From an uncultured Elusimicrobiales bacterium (GTDB lineage: Bacteria; Elusimicrobiota; Elusimicrobia; Elusimicrobiales; Elusimicrobiaceae): 36,640 nt of DNA. The stretch spans positions 1-36,640 of the forward strand of contig CALVGG010000009.1 in the NCBI GenBank assembly GCA_944327085.1, written 5' to 3'. Shown here one piece after another: positions 4,326 through 13,446 of the stretch. The notes under the pieces were generated by a model. That model was not told the DNA's origin and did not search any database. It saw nothing but the letters and a program-made list of their open reading frames with translations. Both the position numbers and the translations under genes were made by a program. Position 1 is the first letter of the stretch, and every line of letters starts with the position of its first letter.

Positions 4326-5465
4326 ATGAAAATTTATCAAGGTGCCGCTTTGGTGGTATGGGTTTTTTTGCTGTGCGGGGCGGTAAATGCCGCCGGGCAG
4401 GGTAATGCTGCCCAACGTTGCGAACAGGGCAGCATCCCGCGCTGCATAATAGAACATTATAATGACGGCAGCCGTGTGGAAATTTATACCGATTCCGAAG
4501 GCGGCGGCCGCGTGGAGTGGCGTTTTACCGGGCAGGACCAACGCCTGACCAATGTGTTTGTTTACCCGGGCCAGGGCGTAACCATGGAGCTAGAGCTAGA
4601 CCCGGATACTTCCAAACCGCAAGCCGCGTTAACCTATACCAAAGAAGGCAAATTGTTGGCATGGCGAACTTTTGACGAAGCCACCCAAACATGGACGGAT
4701 ATCCCCATCAGCAGTTCCACCCATACCCTGGAACGCTTTGTAGACCCGGGGCGCCGGCGTTTGCGCACGGAAGCCTGCCCCAGAAGCGACCGCAAACGCT
4801 GTGAATTGACTCGCAATAATGACGGGTCTTCTACGGAAAAATTATTTTTCCCCAACGGCAAATTGTGGGAAGAAAATATTTTTAAAACCTCTAACCGTTT
4901 GGATTTTGAATTTGCCTCTTTTGACTTTTGGGGCCGTGAACGTGTACGCAAGGTGTATGACCGCCAAAGCGGCAATTTAAAAAGCGCCTACTGGTTTGAT
5001 GAAGAAAACCAACAAACCTTGCGCTATGTATATGATTTAAAAACCGGCAAAGAAACGGCCACCGTAATTTATAACCCCGGCAAGCTGGTTTTACGTTGGG
5101 AAAAAACCGGCCCGGGCGGATTAATTGCCGAGTCTGTTACGTTTAATGAAGACGGAACCCCCAGCAAACGCTCTTTATTTGAGAGCGGGCGCCTGGCGCA
5201 GGAAACCATTTTTCAAAGAGGAGGGCTGCCGCTTACGCGCCTGTATTATAATACCCAGCGGCTGGTGCAGAGCAGAGAAACTTACGGCCCTAACGGGCAG
5301 TTGCAAAAGGTGGAGTGTTTTTCCGGCCCGTGCAAACAGGCGGGGTACACGGTTCGCCCGGCCAAAAAAGGGCGCAGTGTGTGCACCGTTGCCCCGGATG
5401 AACCCCAATGCCAAAAAGATTTTTCCGTTAACACAACGGATATGCTTGTTCCGGGCAGTAAATAA
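4326..5465 (+). CDS. Secreted cysteine-pair protein with YwqK/MORN-like repeats, function unknown
   Basis: The 379-residue product has a clear signal peptide (hydrophobic 6-20, likely cut after AVNA at 22), so it is periplasmic or surface-exposed. The mature part is rich in short beta-hairpin units of the NEDGTPSKRSLFESGRL kind, resembling YwqK/MORN_2 repeats. Two related blocks begin with a cysteine pair (C32-x7-C40 and C151-x7-C159) and continue with (E/R)-x-N-D-G-S. Further pairs are C331/C336 and C353-x8-C362, close to the C-terminus. They look like short disulfide loops. GGGGGA stands 11 nt before the ATG. A terminator follows at 5479-5513. The protein at 28414-29232 shares the C-x8/9-C end. 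No function is claimed. Confidence 0.75.
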   Translation: MKIYQGAALVVWVFLLCGAVNAAGQGNAAQRCEQGSIPRCIIEHYNDGSRVEIYTDSEGGGRVEWRFTGQDQRLTNVFVYPGQGVTMELELDPDTSKPQAALTYTKEGKLLAWRTFDEATQTWTDIPISSSTHTLERFVDPGRRRLRTEACPRSDRKRCELTRNNDGSSTEKLFFPNGKLWEENIFKTSNRLDFEFASFDFWGRERVRKVYDRQSGNLKSAYWFDEENQQTLRYVYDLKTGKETATVIYNPGKLVLRWEKTGPGGLIAESVTFNEDGTPSKRSLFESGRLAQETIFQRGGLPLTRLYYNTQRLVQSRETYGPNGQLQKVECFSGPCKQAGYTVRPAKKGRSVCTVAPDEPQCQKDFSVNTTDMLVPGSK

Positions 5466-5633: not shown

Positions 5634-6305
5634 TTAATAAACTTTTTTTAGCGTAAGCACGCCGTCTTCAAAAAACCACTCTTCTATTAAGTCGCCGTTT
5701 TCGCTGAATTTTTTGGTTACGCCGTGCGGTTTGCCGTCTTTGTGGGGGGAAATGAGCGCAATGGTGCCGTTGGGGTGGTAGACAATTTTATCCCCAATAA
5801 TTTTATCGTTTTTGTAAGTGCATTCAGAGCGTAAATCCCCGTCCTGCGTGTAAATTTTGCTGATGCCGTTTAAATAACCTTTTTGATATTCGGACACTTC
5901 CAAAATTTTCCCGCTGGGATAATATTTTATTTGTTTCCCGTCCTGTATATCGTTGACGTAGGAAAACTCTTTATACAATTTACCGGTGGGGTTATACACG
6001 CGGGCTTTGCCTTGCAAAAGGCCGTTTTCGTAATATTTTTCAATATTTACTTTGCCGTTTTCATAATAAATTTTGCATTTGCCGTTACGCTGGCCGTTTT
6101 TAAATTCGCATTCAAAATACAGTTTTCCGTTTTCAAAAAATTCTTTTACGGTGCCGTCCGGCATGGTGCCTTCGTGCTTTTGAATATCCAAATTTTTGTC
6201 CAGCGTTTCGCGGTATACTTCTTTACCGTCTATGGAATAGGTGCGGATAAACCCCACGTGAAGCGGGTCATTAATGCTGCTTGTTTTTCTGACAATGTCT
6301 ACCAT
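5634..6305 (-). CDS. YwqK/MORN_2-type repeat protein
   Basis: A 223-residue protein made almost wholly of about seven 23-24-residue units from residue ~50 on, each of the form (E/P)-(N/S)-G-K-(L/I)-x5-Y-x-N-G-x2-(N/D/Q)-G-K-x2-Y. This is the MORN_2/YwqK pattern. Databases often call such proteins YwqK-family antitoxins, but that name has little support, and no toxin-like gene is adjacent. I chose the ATG at 6305: GGAGG lies 6-7 nt upstream, and a longer frame to 6374 would overlap the gene upstream for no reason. There is no signal peptide, so the protein is probably cytoplasmic or exported by another route. It lies 1 nt downstream of the flavoprotein gene, with its ribosome site inside that gene's end, so the two are translationally coupled. 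Its role is unknown. Confidence 0.82.
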   Translation of the reverse strand: MVDIVRKTSSINDPLHVGFIRTYSIDGKEVYRETLDKNLDIQKHEGTMPDGTVKEFFENGKLYFECEFKNGQRNGKCKIYYENGKVNIEKYYENGLLQGKARVYNPTGKLYKEFSYVNDIQDGKQIKYYPSGKILEVSEYQKGYLNGISKIYTQDGDLRSECTYKNDKIIGDKIVYHPNGTIALISPHKDGKPHGVTKKFSENGDLIEEWFFEDGVLTLKKVY

Positions 6306-6306
6306 A

Positions 6307-7533
6307 TTAAACCTCCGACAGTTTCCTCGCGGCGGTAAAACCGCTGCTCCAGGCAAAATGTAAATTAAATCCACCGCTGCGGCCGTCTACATCCAGCAGT
6401 TCCCCGGTAATAAACAGCCCCGGGCATTTAAGTGACTCAAATGTATTATAGTTTATTTCGCTGGTATTTACACCCCCGCTTGCGGCCATAGCTTCCTGCC
6501 AGGGGCGCGCAGCGGTTACGTTAAAAGTCCATTTTTGCAAGGTGTGCAATACGTTTTGCCAGGTGTTTGGCGTCCATTCCCGCACGGGGATATTTTTGCG
6601 TATGCCGGCAAAATCAATCAGCAAATTGGCTATATTCTCGTGCAGTAAACCGGCAAAAAAATCTTTGGCCCGGCGCCGGCCAAATGTGTTTTTGCGTGCG
6701 GTCATCACGGCCGGAAAGTCTTTCATATCGGCAAAAAAATTAATATCCAGTTGCACCGGGCCTTTGGCCAGCTGGCGGGTTACCTCTCCGCTTATATTTA
6801 ACGCCGCCGGGCCGCTTACCCCATAATTGGTAAATAAAACTTCCCCCTGGGTTTGGGCAAAAATCTGTTCCTGGCGGCGGGCGGTTAAAGCCGCTTGCAC
6901 CCGTATACCCTGCAGGCGGGACACGGCTTTTTCCTTTAGGGTTAATGCGCACAGGGTTTGCGTGGGCGTAACAATGCTGTGGCCTAAACTTTTGGCCAGT
7001 TGATACCCGCTTTGCGTACCGCTTAACTGCGGGTACGCGCAGGAGCCGCAAGCCAGTACCAGCCGTTTGCTTTTATAGCAACCCCCTTGTTTGGTTTGCA
7101 CCGTAAAACCGTTGCCTGTTTTAATGCGGGCGGCTTCCTGCCCGGTTAAAAGTTGTGCGCCGGCTTCTTGCAAGGCCAGTTTTAAAGGCTCCAGTACGGA
7201 GGTGGATTTGCCCGTTGCCGGGAAAAACCGCCCGTTTTCCTCTTCCCTTAAAGGAATGCCCAGCTGTTCAAAATAGTTTTTGCAGGCCTCAAAAGAAAAA
7301 GCCTTTAAAGTTTGCTCCAGCAGTTCTTGGGGGCCATGATAATCCGCCGCGGACACAAAGCGGTTGGTTATGTTGCAGCGGCCGTTGCCGCTTACTAAAA
7401 TTTTGCGCCCGGGCTGGGGGTCTTTTTCCAGCACAAGCACTTTTTTCCCGCGGTGTGCGCACTCCAGCGCGCATAACAAACCGCTGGCCCCGGCACCCAC
7501 AATGATTACGTCGTAAATTGGCAAACTGTTCAT
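6307..7533 (-). CDS. HI0933/YhiN-family FAD-dependent oxidoreductase
   Basis: The 408-residue protein begins with a Rossmann dinucleotide motif (IIVGAGASG, Gly13-x-Gly15-x2-Gly18) and EKDPQPGRKILVSGNGRCNITN, and ends with the family signature (SGGVNTSEI ... GLFITGELLDVDG ... FAWSSG). These define the HI0933-like (BaiN/YhiN) flavoproteins. They are cytoplasmic, and the substrate is usually unknown; some act as bile-acid enoate reductases. I chose the ATG at 7533 because the Rossmann fold starts there. The longer frame to 7695 would cross the promoter of the divergent gene. There is no Shine-Dalgarno; a TATAAT lies one base before the ATG, which is too close for an ordinary leaderless start. 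The gene is first in an operon with the YwqK-type gene. Confidence 0.88.
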   Translation of the reverse strand: MNSLPIYDVIIVGAGASGLLCALECAHRGKKVLVLEKDPQPGRKILVSGNGRCNITNRFVSAADYHGPQELLEQTLKAFSFEACKNYFEQLGIPLREEENGRFFPATGKSTSVLEPLKLALQEAGAQLLTGQEAARIKTGNGFTVQTKQGGCYKSKRLVLACGSCAYPQLSGTQSGYQLAKSLGHSIVTPTQTLCALTLKEKAVSRLQGIRVQAALTARRQEQIFAQTQGEVLFTNYGVSGPAALNISGEVTRQLAKGPVQLDINFFADMKDFPAVMTARKNTFGRRRAKDFFAGLLHENIANLLIDFAGIRKNIPVREWTPNTWQNVLHTLQKWTFNVTAARPWQEAMAASGGVNTSEINYNTFESLKCPGLFITGELLDVDGRSGGFNLHFAWSSGFTAARKLSEV

Positions 7534-9604: not shown

Positions 9605-10843
9605 TTATCTTTCTTTGGTGGGGCGCTCCGCCAGCCCGGTGATGTGGGTTTTAAAGCTGCGGCGCAGGTCTGCCAGGTCTTTGCGGTTGGTGGCCATAAA
9701 GCAGAAACCGGCCTTGCCGTCTTTCACGCCCGAGGTAAGCACCACCCCGCCGCGGAAAGTGACCCCGGCGTTAATTTTTTCCAGCTCGTCAATTACTTTT
9801 TTGGTGGTCCAGTGCGGGTCAAAGCGCATTTTGGTGTCTAAATAAAAATGCAGTTCCCGGCGGTTAATGCCGTATACGGTTGACGCCAGCCTTAAACACA
9901 GCCCAAACCCGTTATAGCGGGAGTTGCACTCTAGCGCGCGCAGTTTAAGCTCGCCGTCTTTTTGGCGGATGGCCCAGTCAAAGTTAATTTGGCCGCGCAC
10001 CCCTTTGCCATAGTAATAGCTGGCCAGCATGAGGGATTTTTCGCGTATTTCGTCCAGCAGTTTTTTGGGCAGGCGCGTAAACGGAAAGGAGCACCCTTCC
10101 CACGCTTCTTTATGGATGATTTGGCTGTCTATACCCACAAAGGCAATTTCATCGTCTTTTAATATACACAAAGAACCCAGCGTTTTGTATATTTCTTTAA
10201 AACGCTCTAAATAAAAATCCGCCTCTTTGTGGTACATTTTAATAAGCGGCAGCAAATCGGCCAGTTTACCCTTTACGTTGCCGTACCCGCCGGCGGAAAA
10301 CGGCCGGCGCAGCAGGTATGTTTCCCGCGGGTCCAGCAGGGCCAGCACGCGGGGCATTTTATTCATACCGGCTTCGTACACGGGGGCGATGGTGGTGATA
10401 TTGAATTTTTTGCACAATTCTTTAAACACCAGCTTGTTGTTGGCTTCCTGCACGGCAATGGAGTTGTTAAGCAGCTTGTTTTCGCACTGCCAGCTCAGGT
10501 GGGCAAATTCCTTGGTGTACATCAGGGGGATGATTACATAACCGATACTGCACAATTTGCGCAGTTTAGCCAGCAATTGCTCATCGCGCGAAATGGCGGA
10601 AATCAGGCTCTCATCCTCTTTTTGTTCCTTGGGCATAAACATCCAGTTTTTATGCTCCAGTTTTTTGATGCGGGCCATATAGTCCACAAACGCTTTATCC
10701 GGCTCTGTAAGAGGGGAAACCACGCAAAAATCACCCGGTTTTAATAACTGGATGTATTTTAGGGAGTGGCTTTTTAACGCGTCCAACGCTTTGCTTTTAA
10801 ATACAAAGTCGTCCAAATTTAAAATCCAAACTTTATTAGGCAT
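9605..10843 (-). CDS. ATP-grasp superfamily ligase (pre-ATP-grasp type), substrate unknown
   Basis: ATP-grasp enzymes activate a carboxylate as acyl phosphate and join it to an amine or another nucleophile. The 412-residue protein has an N-terminal Rossmann-like pre-ATP-grasp region (1-~125) and a VQEANNKLVFKELCKKF helix that opens the ATP-grasp core. The nucleotide loop is LLRRPFSAGGYGNVKG (177-192). The metal/ATP site has Asp289 in GQINFDWAI and Glu305-x-Asn307 in RALECNSRYNG. The nearest types I can name are peptide ligases with a pre-ATP-grasp domain, not D-Ala-D-Ala ligase or glutathione synthetase. The start codon overlaps the radical SAM stop by 8 bp (10836-10843), so the two genes are translationally coupled. 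The substrate is not predictable from sequence. Confidence 0.82.
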   Translation of the reverse strand: MPNKVWILNLDDFVFKSKALDALKSHSLKYIQLLKPGDFCVVSPLTEPDKAFVDYMARIKKLEHKNWMFMPKEQKEDESLISAISRDEQLLAKLRKLCSIGYVIIPLMYTKEFAHLSWQCENKLLNNSIAVQEANNKLVFKELCKKFNITTIAPVYEAGMNKMPRVLALLDPRETYLLRRPFSAGGYGNVKGKLADLLPLIKMYHKEADFYLERFKEIYKTLGSLCILKDDEIAFVGIDSQIIHKEAWEGCSFPFTRLPKKLLDEIREKSLMLASYYYGKGVRGQINFDWAIRQKDGELKLRALECNSRYNGFGLCLRLASTVYGINRRELHFYLDTKMRFDPHWTTKKVIDELEKINAGVTFRGGVVLTSGVKDGKAGFCFMATNRKDLADLRRSFKTHITGLAERPTKER

Positions 10844-11807
10844 AGAATTTACCGTTGCACACCGGGCAGAAGCTCTTTACGGATACGATGTCGTCCTTGT
10901 CGGAAGATTTCAGCCCGCAGACCACAAAATCAAACCCGTATTCTTTCAGCAGGGCGGCCACGCGTTTGATGCTTTCCAGTTTTACTTCGTGTTTTAAAGC
11001 GTAGTAAGTGGTTTCCGTTTGGTTGGGCAGCAGTTGGCGGTCGTCATGCAGGTAGTTTTCTTTTAATTTAGAGAAGAACTCCTCGCCAAATTTTTCCACA
11101 ATGTTCTTGGCAATGGTGTAATCGTACAATAAATAAGAAAACATCACGCGTTTTAAGCCCGCTTCTTTTAAAGAAGCCAAAAACGGGCGCAGCACCTCTT
11201 CGGTGTCTTCCACGCCGGTAATCAGCGGGTCCATATGTATGGTAACCAAAGCGCCCGCCTGTTGGGCCTGGGCCGCGCGGCGGATGCGTTCCTCCCGGGG
11301 GGGAACATTGGTTTCCATACAAATGGCGGCCTGCGGCTTAATGGCCGCACTGTAGGAAAATTTGGCCGGGTACCGGCGGATTAAATCCATAATGGCGTCG
11401 TTCGGCACGCCTTTGGTGGTAATAATGATACGTTTAATTTGCGGGTGGGTGGCCAGCAGGGTAAGCACGTCCAGCGAAAAACCGTTGTCCACAAATTTTT
11501 TGCAGAAAATATCCGTATAGCGGGAAAGTTTAATGGTGTGGATTTTGGGGTCTGCGTCAATTTCTTTTTTCATAGCGGCCAGGGCTTCTTCGCGGGGCAT
11601 GCCTATTTGCGGGTCCGTAAATTGGCAGTGCAGGGCGCTGAGGCGGTTGGTCACGTCGCTGCGGCCTTTGGCGTAGCAGTAAACGCAGTCATGCTGGCAG
11701 CCGGTAAACGGTTCCAAGTAATGGTAATTGCCGTACCAGCAGGTGCCTAAACAGCCGGGCACAAAAAAGTGGGTTTTGGGCGTGGAATTCGTATCATTCG
11801 TATTCAT
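10836..11807 (-). CDS. Radical SAM protein (SplB-like branch) with extra cysteines
   Basis: The 323-residue protein has the radical SAM cluster motif C37-x3-C41-x2-C44 in FTGCQHDCVYCYAKGR, followed by a TIM-barrel-like succession (RIIITTKG, SYSAAIKP, VTIHMDPLITG). This resembles the branch around spore photoproduct lyase and the Rv2578c-like proteins. An extra C19-x3-C23 pair precedes the motif, and the C-terminus ends with C314-P-V-C317 and Cys near 299, which might bind a second Fe-S cluster or zinc. It is not a spore photolyase by context. There is no Shine-Dalgarno: TATAAT (11815-11820) stands 7 nt before the ATG. It is the first gene of a two-gene operon with the ATP-grasp ligase. The reaction is unknown. 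Confidence 0.85.
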   Translation of the reverse strand: MNTNDTNSTPKTHFFVPGCLGTCWYGNYHYLEPFTGCQHDCVYCYAKGRSDVTNRLSALHCQFTDPQIGMPREEALAAMKKEIDADPKIHTIKLSRYTDIFCKKFVDNGFSLDVLTLLATHPQIKRIIITTKGVPNDAIMDLIRRYPAKFSYSAAIKPQAAICMETNVPPREERIRRAAQAQQAGALVTIHMDPLITGVEDTEEVLRPFLASLKEAGLKRVMFSYLLYDYTIAKNIVEKFGEEFFSKLKENYLHDDRQLLPNQTETTYYALKHEVKLESIKRVAALLKEYGFDFVVCGLKSSDKDDIVSVKSFCPVCNGKFYA

Positions 11808-11850: not shown

Positions 11851-12489
11851 TTAGCGCGGCAGGGGTATGTCCAGCACGGGGTGATTGGTTTTCCAGCCGG
11901 TTTTGTCAAAGTGCCACCATTCGGTGCGGGTGTAGGTAAAGCCGGCGCGGGTCATAATTTTTTTTAAGGTTTCCCGGCGCGATAGAACATCTTCGGGCAA
12001 GTCATAAAAATCCATATGGGCCTGGCGGGTAAAGCTGTCAAACCCGGTGGGCATGGGCAGGGGGTTACCGTTAAAATCACACGGGGTTAAATCCACCGCC
12101 ATTCCGCGGTTATGGCGGGAGCCTTTGGCCGGCGGTGTTACATAGCTGGGGTTGGGCACGGCCTTCCATAATTTTTTTTGGGCGGCAAGCGGGCGGTAAC
12201 AATCCCACAAACAAAATGTAAAAGGTTCTTTTTCCTGTGCGGCCAGTTCCACGGCTTTTAAGAGGGCTTGCGCCGCGTCTTTATGCAGGTAACAGCGGGG
12301 GGAGTCGTAAATTTTTTGCTTGGTAAAGTTGTTGGGTGTGGCGTAGCGTATATCAAAAAATAAAGGGGCACCCAGTGTTTCCACGTCTACCAGGCCGGCT
12401 TTTTCCAGTTGTTCTTCGGCCGAGGTTTGGCCGTGTGCGGCCGGCAGCGCAAGCGCCAAAATAAAGCAAAATACCCACAAGCGTTTCAT
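11851..12489 (-). CDS. VanX/DdpX-like D-alanyl-D-alanine dipeptidase (peptidase M15D)
   Basis: The 212-residue product has a signal peptide (hydrophobic 5-18, likely cut after AHG at 20), so it is periplasmic. It carries the M15 zinc and catalytic residues: S-R-H126-x3-G-x2-V-D133 and T-E190-W-W-H193-F-D, plus the conserved CYRP (Arg99). The family hydrolyses free D-Ala-D-Ala and similar dipeptides. With no vanA/vanH or regulator nearby, cell-wall dipeptide recycling is more likely than glycopeptide resistance. I chose the ATG at 12489, because the longer frame runs through era and only this start gives a signal peptide. There is no Shine-Dalgarno; TATACT lies 6 nt upstream. Confidence 0.87.
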   Translation of the reverse strand: MKRLWVFCFILALALPAAHGQTSAEEQLEKAGLVDVETLGAPLFFDIRYATPNNFTKQKIYDSPRCYLHKDAAQALLKAVELAAQEKEPFTFCLWDCYRPLAAQKKLWKAVPNPSYVTPPAKGSRHNRGMAVDLTPCDFNGNPLPMPTGFDSFTRQAHMDFYDLPEDVLSRRETLKKIMTRAGFTYTRTEWWHFDKTGWKTNHPVLDIPLPR

Positions 12490-12495
12490 TATTTC

Positions 12496-12501
12496 AGTAT
12501 A
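12496..12501 (-). promoter_or_regulatory. TATACT -10 box 6 nt before the VanX-like start
   Basis: On the minus strand TATACT, then GAAATA, then ATG. There is no ribosome site in the 54-nt gap shared with era. The -35 is not convincing. Confidence 0.45.
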
Positions 12502-12507
12502 TAAAAT

Positions 12508-12536
12508 TTTACCTGTGGTAAAAAAACAAGTACAAT
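12508..12536 (+). promoter_or_regulatory. era promoter, leaderless layout
   Basis: TTTACC (12508-12513), a 17-nt spacer, TACAAT (12531-12536), then 7 nt to the ATG at 12544. No Shine-Dalgarno is present. A second overlapping TACAAT lies at 12536-12541. Confidence 0.5.
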
Positions 12537-12543
12537 ACAATAT

Positions 12544-13446
12544 ATGGACGAAAAACACTTTAAAAGCGGTTTTGCCGTACTGGCCGGGCTGCCCAATGCG
12601 GGTAAGTCCACGCTGCTTAATAAGCTGGCGGGGGGGTTGTTGTCCCCGGTTACCAGCAAGCCCCAAACCACGCGCCAAAACATTTTGGCCATTAGCGAGG
12701 GGGACGGTTACCAAGTGGTGTTTGTAGACACACCCGGTTTTTTGCAGCCGCGCTATAAATTGCAGCAAACCATGGTAAACGCGGTGGACCGCGCCGTGGG
12801 GGAAGAAGCCGACCTGGTTGTTTTTATGCTGGACGCGGCCGCCCCGTATGATTTAAATGCCGGACTGGTAGAAAAATTAAAACAAGTGTTTTGCCCCATT
12901 TTTTTGGTGATTAATAAAATGGATTTGGTGCAGGACGAATCCCGCCTGAACGAACTGGAAGCCGCCGTGCGCAAAGATTTGCCGGTAAAACAGGTTTTTC
13001 ACATTTCCGCCATGCAGGGCAAAGGGGTGGACGCATTAAAACAGGCCGTTATTGAGGCCATGCCCGTCAGCCCGGCGTACTTCCCGCCCGGGCAGTGGAC
13101 GGACCGCTGGGAACGTTTTTACGCGGCCGAATTTATCCGTGAGCAGATTTTCCTTCTTTACAAAAAAGAAATTCCTTACAGCACGTACGTGGAAGTGGAA
13201 AAATTTACCGAAGACCTGGGCGACAAAAATTACATCCGCGCCATTATTCATGTGGAGCGTGAAAGTCAAAAGCCCATTATTATCGGCAAAGGCGGCAGTG
13301 CCATTGCACAGCTGCGTAAAAACGCGCAAAAACGCATTGAAGAATTTTTGGGCCGCAAGTACCGCCTGGAGCTGACTGTCACCGTCACGCCGGACTGGCG
13401 CAACAATACCCAAATGCTGGAGCGTTTTGGCTATATTGTTAAATAG
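12544..13446 (+). CDS. era: GTPase Era
   Basis: The 300-residue protein has the full Era plan. The G domain has G1 GLPNAGKS (15-22), G2 KPQTTRQN, G3 DTPG (62-65), G4 NKMD (124-127) and G5 SAMQGKG. A KH domain with IIIGKGGSAIAQLRKNAQKRIE sits near 240-265. Era binds the 3' end of 16S rRNA and helps mature the 30S subunit. Its length is typical. The gene is monocistronic, divergent from the VanX-like gene across 54 nt, and ends at a strong hairpin. It has no Shine-Dalgarno and a -10 box 7 nt upstream. Confidence 0.95.
   Translation: MDEKHFKSGFAVLAGLPNAGKSTLLNKLAGGLLSPVTSKPQTTRQNILAISEGDGYQVVFVDTPGFLQPRYKLQQTMVNAVDRAVGEEADLVVFMLDAAAPYDLNAGLVEKLKQVFCPIFLVINKMDLVQDESRLNELEAAVRKDLPVKQVFHISAMQGKGVDALKQAVIEAMPVSPAYFPPGQWTDRWERFYAAEFIREQIFLLYKKEIPYSTYVEVEKFTEDLGDKNYIRAIIHVERESQKPIIIGKGGSAIAQLRKNAQKRIEEFLGRKYRLELTVTVTPDWRNNTQMLERFGYIVK

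What the first reader, a model, noticed from the sequence alone, without database searches (positions are those of the whole stretch)
9605..11807. Overlapping radical SAM and ATP-grasp gene pair: candidate undescribed biosynthetic module
The sequence shows a radical SAM protein (CxxxCxxC motif) whose stop overlaps by 8 bp the start of an ATP-grasp ligase (loop SAGGYGNV, metal site Asp289/Glu305/Asn307). Radical SAM and ATP-grasp enzymes are known partners in peptide natural-product and cofactor pathways, but I do not recognise this pairing. No precursor peptide, transporter or other pathway gene is visible alongside, so the substrate may be a metabolite, a ribosomal or tRNA target, or a peptide encoded elsewhere. 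The inference is a two-enzyme module.
Basis: partly seen in the sequence, partly recalled or inferred. Interest (0 to 1): 0.62.

Follow-up and report, generated by a model that had tools for sequence, protein, structure and literature searches.

The report
Half of a split four-gene biosynthetic cassette
The two overlapping enzyme genes are real and are the core of a rare, conserved four-gene set (methyltransferase, radical SAM enzyme, amide-bond-forming ATP-grasp ligase, membrane transporter) that probably makes and exports an unknown small molecule; in this bacterium the set has been split, with the other two genes elsewhere in the genome.

Summary
In detail: on the minus strand, a radical SAM gene (11807-10836) overlaps an ATP-grasp gene (10843-9605) by 8 bp. 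The pairing is very strongly conserved: 34 of 34 complete radical SAM relatives found in 84,980 species genomes have the ATP-grasp gene next to or overlapping them, from Elusimicrobiota to Riflebacteria, Oligoflexia and others. The inference of a two-enzyme module is incomplete. Outside the window's own clade, the pair is flanked by a class I methyltransferase and an MFS transporter, making a compact four-gene cassette. The window's genome does carry both missing genes, side by side on another contig (C2, 81.5-83.4 kb). All four proteins show the same relationships between species and are under purifying selection, so the cassette was split but kept. The ATP-grasp is a PGM1/BesA-type amino-acid or peptide ligase by profile and fold; the radical SAM enzyme has the spore-photoproduct-lyase fold but belongs to no named subfamily. 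No precursor peptide is conserved. Best reading: a small, methylated, radical-SAM-modified amide (dipeptide-like) metabolite is made without a ribosomal template and exported. Substrate, order of steps and transport direction are inferred. I found no published description.

The parts
10836..11807 (-). Radical SAM gene, 323 aa, spore-photoproduct-lyase-like fold
   Evidence: PF04055 E 7e-8; AlphaFold pLDDT 88.5; best PDB matches spore photoproduct lyase, Z 19.9 against 14.8 for the next family
11676..11699 (-). CxxxCxxC (C37, C41, C44) for the [4Fe-4S] cluster, within the family motif GCLGTCWYGxYHYxEPxxGCxHxCxYCYA
   Evidence: the three cysteines are invariant over 35 relatives
10839..10859 (-). 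Conserved C-terminal tail C-[DN]-G-x-F-Y-A of the radical SAM protein (residues 317-323)
   Evidence: C317, G319, F321, Y322, A323 invariant over 35 relatives; FYA also kept in two loci (L039, L045) where the overlapping ATG is lost
10836..10843 (-). 8-bp overlap of the radical SAM stop and the ATP-grasp start (ATGCCTAA)
   Evidence: same 8-bp overlap in 29 of 34 relatives
9605..10843 (-). ATP-grasp ligase gene, 412 aa, PGM1/BesA-type
   Evidence: profile match to 8YND (6e-30), PGM1 (4e-15) and BesA (7e-14); AlphaFold pLDDT 90.8; Z 31.3 to PGM1, 30.6 to 8YND, 29.6 to BesA
10496..10750 (-). Pre-ATP-grasp domain (residues 32-116)
   Evidence: PF18604, E 1.9e-4, below cut-off in this protein, but 29 of 37 relatives match, best 1.7e-16
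10274..10297 (-). ATP-binding glycine loop SAGGYGNV (residues 183-190)
   Evidence: G185, G186 invariant; G188, N189 at least 90%
9908..9979 (-). Catalytic metal and substrate region D289...E305-C-N307-S-R309-Y-N311-G312
   Evidence: E305, N307, R309, N311, G312 invariant, D289 at least 90%; the motif ExNxR aligns with PGM1, 8YND and BesA

Best explanation
The pair is the catalytic core of a four-gene biosynthetic and export cassette (methyltransferase, radical SAM, ATP-grasp ligase, MFS transporter) that is split in this genome between the window and contig C2. Proposed mechanism: the radical SAM enzyme uses its [4Fe-4S] cluster and S-adenosylmethionine to make a 5'-deoxyadenosyl radical that modifies a small substrate, most likely an amino acid. 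The methyltransferase methylates that substrate or the product. The PGM1/BesA-type ATP-grasp enzyme activates a carboxylate as an acyl phosphate and joins it to the amine of an amino acid or short peptide. The MFS protein exports the resulting small amide. Shown: conservation, adjacency, the split with retention of both halves, purifying selection, folds and catalytic residues, absence of a conserved precursor peptide. Inferred: that the substrates are amino acids, the order of steps, the kind of methylation, and export rather than import.
For: Adjacency in 34 of 34 complete loci. Methyltransferase present in 31 of the 35 genome-contig loci, the four without it being the window's clade, and MFS in all complete loci apart from that clade and one Oligoflexia genome. 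Both missing genes are in the window's genome on C2. In the genus the radical SAM is in 7 of 66 genomes and the MFS in 6 of 66, all 6 among the 7. Pairwise protein distances of the four genes correlate at r 0.88-0.96 over 29 genomes, none of 999 permutations reaching the observed value, and the relocated genes rank their relatives as the window pair does. dN/dS 0.03-0.14 for all four genes within the split clade, no internal stops. ATP-grasp fold and profile closest to peptide or amino-acid ligases PGM1, 8YND and BesA. No conserved small ORF near the cassettes. Flanking genes differ even between relatives of the same family, so the cassette is an accessory unit.
Against: No substrate or product is known. 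The window ATP-grasp protein alone is below the PF18604 cut-off. One window-clade genome (G131, 92% complete) has the pair but no MFS or clear methyltransferase, and one Oligoflexia genome lacks the MFS. The split clade is one lineage, so joint retention is roughly one evolutionary observation, not many. PGM1 itself acts on a ribosomal peptide, so a precursor encoded elsewhere is not excluded.
Confidence: 0.6

Rival explanations
1. A ribosomally made peptide encoded elsewhere in the genome is modified by the radical SAM, methyltransferase and ATP-grasp and exported by the MFS transporter (a PGM1-like or graspetide-like system).
For: PGM1 joins a nonproteinogenic amino acid to a small core peptide (PMC8939145, read) and is one of the three nearest solved relatives.
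Against: No conserved small ORF within 2 kb of the cassettes; genes are packed with no room for a precursor between them; no SPASM or other RiPP family matches in Pfam or NCBIfam.
Confidence: 0.13
2. The cassette handles a compound taken up or met from outside: the MFS protein is an importer or an efflux pump and the three enzymes inactivate or salvage the compound.
For: The MFS protein has weak matches to drug-efflux families; the distribution is patchy, as for resistance functions.
Against: Three dedicated anabolic-type enzymes, including a radical SAM enzyme and an amide ligase, are more than inactivation usually needs; PADLOC gives no defence match for radical SAM, ATP-grasp or MFS.
Confidence: 0.13
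3. The product is a metal-binding or cofactor-like small molecule made by the same gene logic.
For: Small enzyme sets with an MFS exporter are used for some metallophores (own knowledge).
Against: No metal-uptake gene recurs beside the cassettes.
Confidence: 0.08
4. The enzymes modify an RNA or a protein in the cell (tRNA, ribosome) and the transporter is an incidental neighbour.
For: By VIA-align the radical SAM model also matches RlmN, at a lower Z of about 14.8.
Against: Very patchy presence, 7 of 66 genomes in the genus and 2 of 369 in the phylum of the Oligoflexia loci; the MFS gene tracks the enzymes across several phyla.
Confidence: 0.04
5. The adjacency is an ordinary vertical operon remnant without shared function.
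For: Most loci are from one phylum.
Against: The cassette keeps its make-up from Elusimicrobiota to Oligoflexia at about 20-30% ATP-grasp identity while flanking genes change, and both halves are kept after the split.
Confidence: 0.02

Closest known systems
PGM1 (pheganomycin ATP-grasp peptide ligase, PDB 3WVQ/3WVR) and the Streptomyces ATP-grasp peptide ligase 8YND
   Same: Full-length fold (Z 31.3 and 30.6), pre-ATP-grasp domain, ExNxR catalytic motif
   Different: About 15% identity; different gene partners here, with no precursor peptide gene
BesA, L-propargylglycine--L-glutamate ligase (PDB 8YI6)
   Same: Fold (Z 29.6) and profile match (7e-14); joins two amino acids
   Different: Far below the NCBIfam BesA cut-off where it matches at all (23.5 against 750 for one relative)
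Spore photoproduct lyase (PDB 4FHC and mutants)
   Same: Radical SAM fold, the only family clearly above the rest (Z 19.9)
   Different: 14% identity; the spore-photoproduct-lyase-family model TIGR03886 gives 22 bits against a cut-off of 437.55; lies in a biosynthetic cassette rather than DNA repair
PA0069 and Rv2578c radical SAM families (function unknown)
   Same: Best sequence-level relatives (E 1.6e-9 and 4.4e-7)
   Different: 37 and 29 bits against cut-offs of 360 and 430; conserved LGTCWYGxYHY and C-terminal CxGxFYA motifs here
Graspetide loci with SPASM radical SAM enzymes (PMC8939145)
   Same: ATP-grasp and radical SAM genes together in one locus
   Different: No SPASM match, closest ATP-grasp relatives are PGM1/BesA, no precursor peptide found

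Membership tests
PGM1/BesA-type ATP-grasp peptide or amino-acid ligases | Full-length fold of pre-ATP-grasp plus ATP-grasp domains | tested here: met
   Z 31.3, 389 aligned, rmsd 3.9 to 3WVQ; PurK, PylC and carboxylases at Z 21-25
PGM1/BesA-type ATP-grasp peptide or amino-acid ligases | Pfam pre-ATP-grasp domain PF18604 | tested here: inconclusive
   Window protein 22.4 bits against cut-off 27.5; 29 of 37 relatives match at E up to 0.01, best 1.7e-16
PGM1/BesA-type ATP-grasp peptide or amino-acid ligases | Catalytic ExNxR motif | tested here: met
   Invariant over 37 relatives and aligned with 8YND, PGM1 and BesA
PGM1/BesA-type ATP-grasp peptide or amino-acid ligases | Ligation of an amino-acid or peptide substrate | not testable with these tools
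   Needs biochemistry
Radical SAM superfamily | CxxxCxxC and radical SAM barrel | tested here: met
   PF04055 33.2 bits against 29.5; fold matches
Spore photoproduct lyase family | TIGR03886 cut-off | tested here: not met
   22 bits against 437.55
Spore photoproduct lyase family | Catalytic hydrogen-donor cysteine | not tested
   No residue-level structural alignment was available; a C/S position (window S95) in the KL[CS]R[YF]TD motif is only a guess
PA0069 / Rv2578c radical SAM families | NCBIfam cut-offs | tested here: not met
   37.3 against 360, 29.2 against 430
Graspetide (RiPP) clusters | Conserved precursor peptide beside the ligase | tested here: not met
   No small ORF family other than fragments of larger genes or antisense shadows
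Viperin and other known defence proteins | PADLOC model match | tested here: not met
   No match for the radical SAM, ATP-grasp or MFS proteins; the methyltransferase matches parts of mad2 and of type III methyltransferase models, as a generic methyltransferase domain would

The most novel reading that the evidence does not exclude
An undescribed family of four-gene pathways, spread over several mostly uncultured phyla, makes a new class of exported methylated amide metabolites by a new radical SAM reaction of a spore-photoproduct-lyase-like enzyme. The invariant extra cysteines (C23, C297, C317) and the invariant C-terminal FYA tail would be part of that new active site.
Probability: 0.4. Interest if true: 0.72.

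Novelty: new variant of a known kind. Interest (0 to 1): 0.55.

Why it matters
The cassette is tiny and self-contained, so it could be moved into a laboratory host and its product sought directly. It gives a functional context to a radical SAM branch that has none, points to specialised metabolism in Elusimicrobiota, whose chemistry is hardly known, and shows how splitting a cassette can hide a pathway from a locus-by-locus reading.

Tried and rejected
Two-gene module: rejected, partners found on C2. VanX-like dipeptidase as a pathway member: it ends 43 bp upstream of the radical SAM start in the window, but relatives are in 33 of 66 genus genomes regardless of the pair and often carry in-frame stops. 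Precursor peptide: none conserved. Defence system: no telling PADLOC match. Viral carriage: no relative in viral contigs. Solved structures by sequence for the radical SAM profile: none even at E 10. An M20 peptidase gene upstream of the cassette recurs in 6 Elusimicrobiota loci but not in other phyla, so I do not count it as core. Papers: searches combining radical SAM, ATP-grasp, methyltransferase, MFS and Elusimicrobia gave no description of such a cassette; only an open-access library was searched. The radical SAM family is in 5 of 40 genomes of the Riflebacteria phylum and 2 of 369 of the Oligoflexia phylum, so it is patchy there too.

Full report
Observation. On the minus strand of the window a 323-aa radical SAM ORF (11807-10836) is followed by a 412-aa ATP-grasp ORF (10843-9605); stop and start overlap by 8 bp, ATGCCTAA. 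The window is the whole of contig C9 of a 1.67-Mb genome; its nearest named relatives are Elusimicrobiales metagenome-assembled genomes.

Is the pair more than chance? In 295 genomes of the phylum the ATP-grasp occurs in 24, and 23 of these have the radical SAM gene next to it. The exception (G034) has an ATP-grasp without a radical SAM gene beside it and no full MFS match. A scan of 84,980 species genomes for the radical SAM family gave 35 loci, with record titles from Elusimicrobiota, UBP9, Riflebacteria/Ozemobacteria, a Cyanobacteria bacterium UBA8530 and Oligoflexia. All 34 complete ones have the ATP-grasp gene next to or overlapping the radical SAM gene, with the same 8-bp overlap in 29. 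The scan reaches only relatives close enough to match two peptide patterns, so more distant versions may exist.

The real unit has four genes. Clustering of neighbours showed two more conserved families: a ~220-aa class I methyltransferase and a ~400-aa MFS transporter. With profiles, the methyltransferase is found in 31 of 35 loci, the four without it being the window's clade; the MFS is found in all but that clade, one Oligoflexia locus and three loci cut by contig ends. The usual order is methyltransferase, radical SAM, ATP-grasp, MFS on one strand; in the window's family several loci have the MFS-methyltransferase half divergent; in one Oligoflexia locus (L058) the methyltransferase is last.

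The window's genome has the other half. Profile searches found one strong MFS match and one strong methyltransferase match in G000, side by side at C2:81.5-83.4 kb. The pair lies 9.6 kb from one end of C9 and about 25 kb from the other, and C2 is 372.5 kb long, so the halves are at least about 90 kb apart. Of 66 genomes in the genus, 7 have the radical SAM, 6 have the MFS, and all 6 are among the 7. In four of these (G000, G063, G217, G253) the halves are on different contigs; in G155 and G202 they are still linked. The split appears to be one event in one clade, so this is good but not independent evidence. Distances between species correlate between the four proteins (r 0.88-0.96), and the relocated methyltransferase and MFS rank their relatives as the window pair does. 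All four genes in the split clade are under purifying selection, dN/dS 0.03-0.14. Among the family members compared (G007, G034, G155, G202), flanking genes are essentially not shared with the window or with the C2 locus.

What the enzymes are. The ATP-grasp model (pLDDT 90.8) matches PGM1, 8YND and BesA over its whole length at Z 29.6-31.3, against 21-25 for PurK, PylC and carboxylases (the Staphylococcus protein 7R8Q is between, at 27); profile matches agree. These are ligases that join amino acids or peptides, often with an unusual amino acid. The radical SAM model (pLDDT 88.5) matches spore photoproduct lyase at Z 19.9, the next family being at 14.8, yet scores far below every named NCBIfam subfamily. 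Its family hallmarks are an N-terminal LGTCWYGxYHYxEP stretch, three invariant cysteines outside the cluster motif (C23, C297, C317) and an invariant C-terminal FYA. FYA is kept in L039 and L045 where the overlapping ATG is lost, so it seems to be held at protein level. A second metal site is a guess.

Mechanism. With no conserved precursor peptide, an amide ligase of the amino-acid-joining type, two SAM-dependent enzymes and a transporter, the best reading is synthesis and export of a small modified amide. Radical chemistry, methylation, ligation and export are each inferred from family; substrates, order and direction of transport are not shown.

Novelty. The component superfamilies are known; I found no description of this combination, and neither window protein reaches a named equivalog or subfamily cut-off. 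I therefore rate it a new variant of a known kind (a compact biosynthetic cassette).

Noticed in passing
window 11854-12672 (-): VanX-like D-Ala-D-Ala dipeptidase (PF01427) directly upstream of the pair; in the genus relatives are present in 33 of 66 genomes and often carry in-frame stops, so the gene seems to be decaying and is not tied to the pair.
   Followed up: yes
L117 9706-10932 (G034): A relative in the same family keeps the ATP-grasp without the radical SAM or a full MFS match, with a methyltransferase relative elsewhere: a likely relic of the cassette. The 1,643,562-bp single contig fits Elusimicrobium minutum Pei191 (from memory).
   Followed up: partly
L026, L027, L028, L029, L054, L057, upstream of the methyltransferase: An M20 peptidase gene recurs beside the cassette in six Elusimicrobiota loci, a possible optional fifth gene.
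   Followed up: partly
L058 6044-7892: In this Oligoflexia locus a second methyltransferase and a 349-aa protein without Pfam match overlap each other and lie just upstream of the radical SAM gene: a possibly extended version.
   Followed up: no
L034 (record titled Burkholderiales bacterium): Its cassette resembles those of the UBP9 records L030/L031; the record may be mislabelled or mis-binned.
   Followed up: no
window 4326-5465 (+) and 5634-6374 (-): MORN-repeat proteins, one with many repeats (PF07661, E 7e-32), near the pair but not part of it.
   Followed up: no
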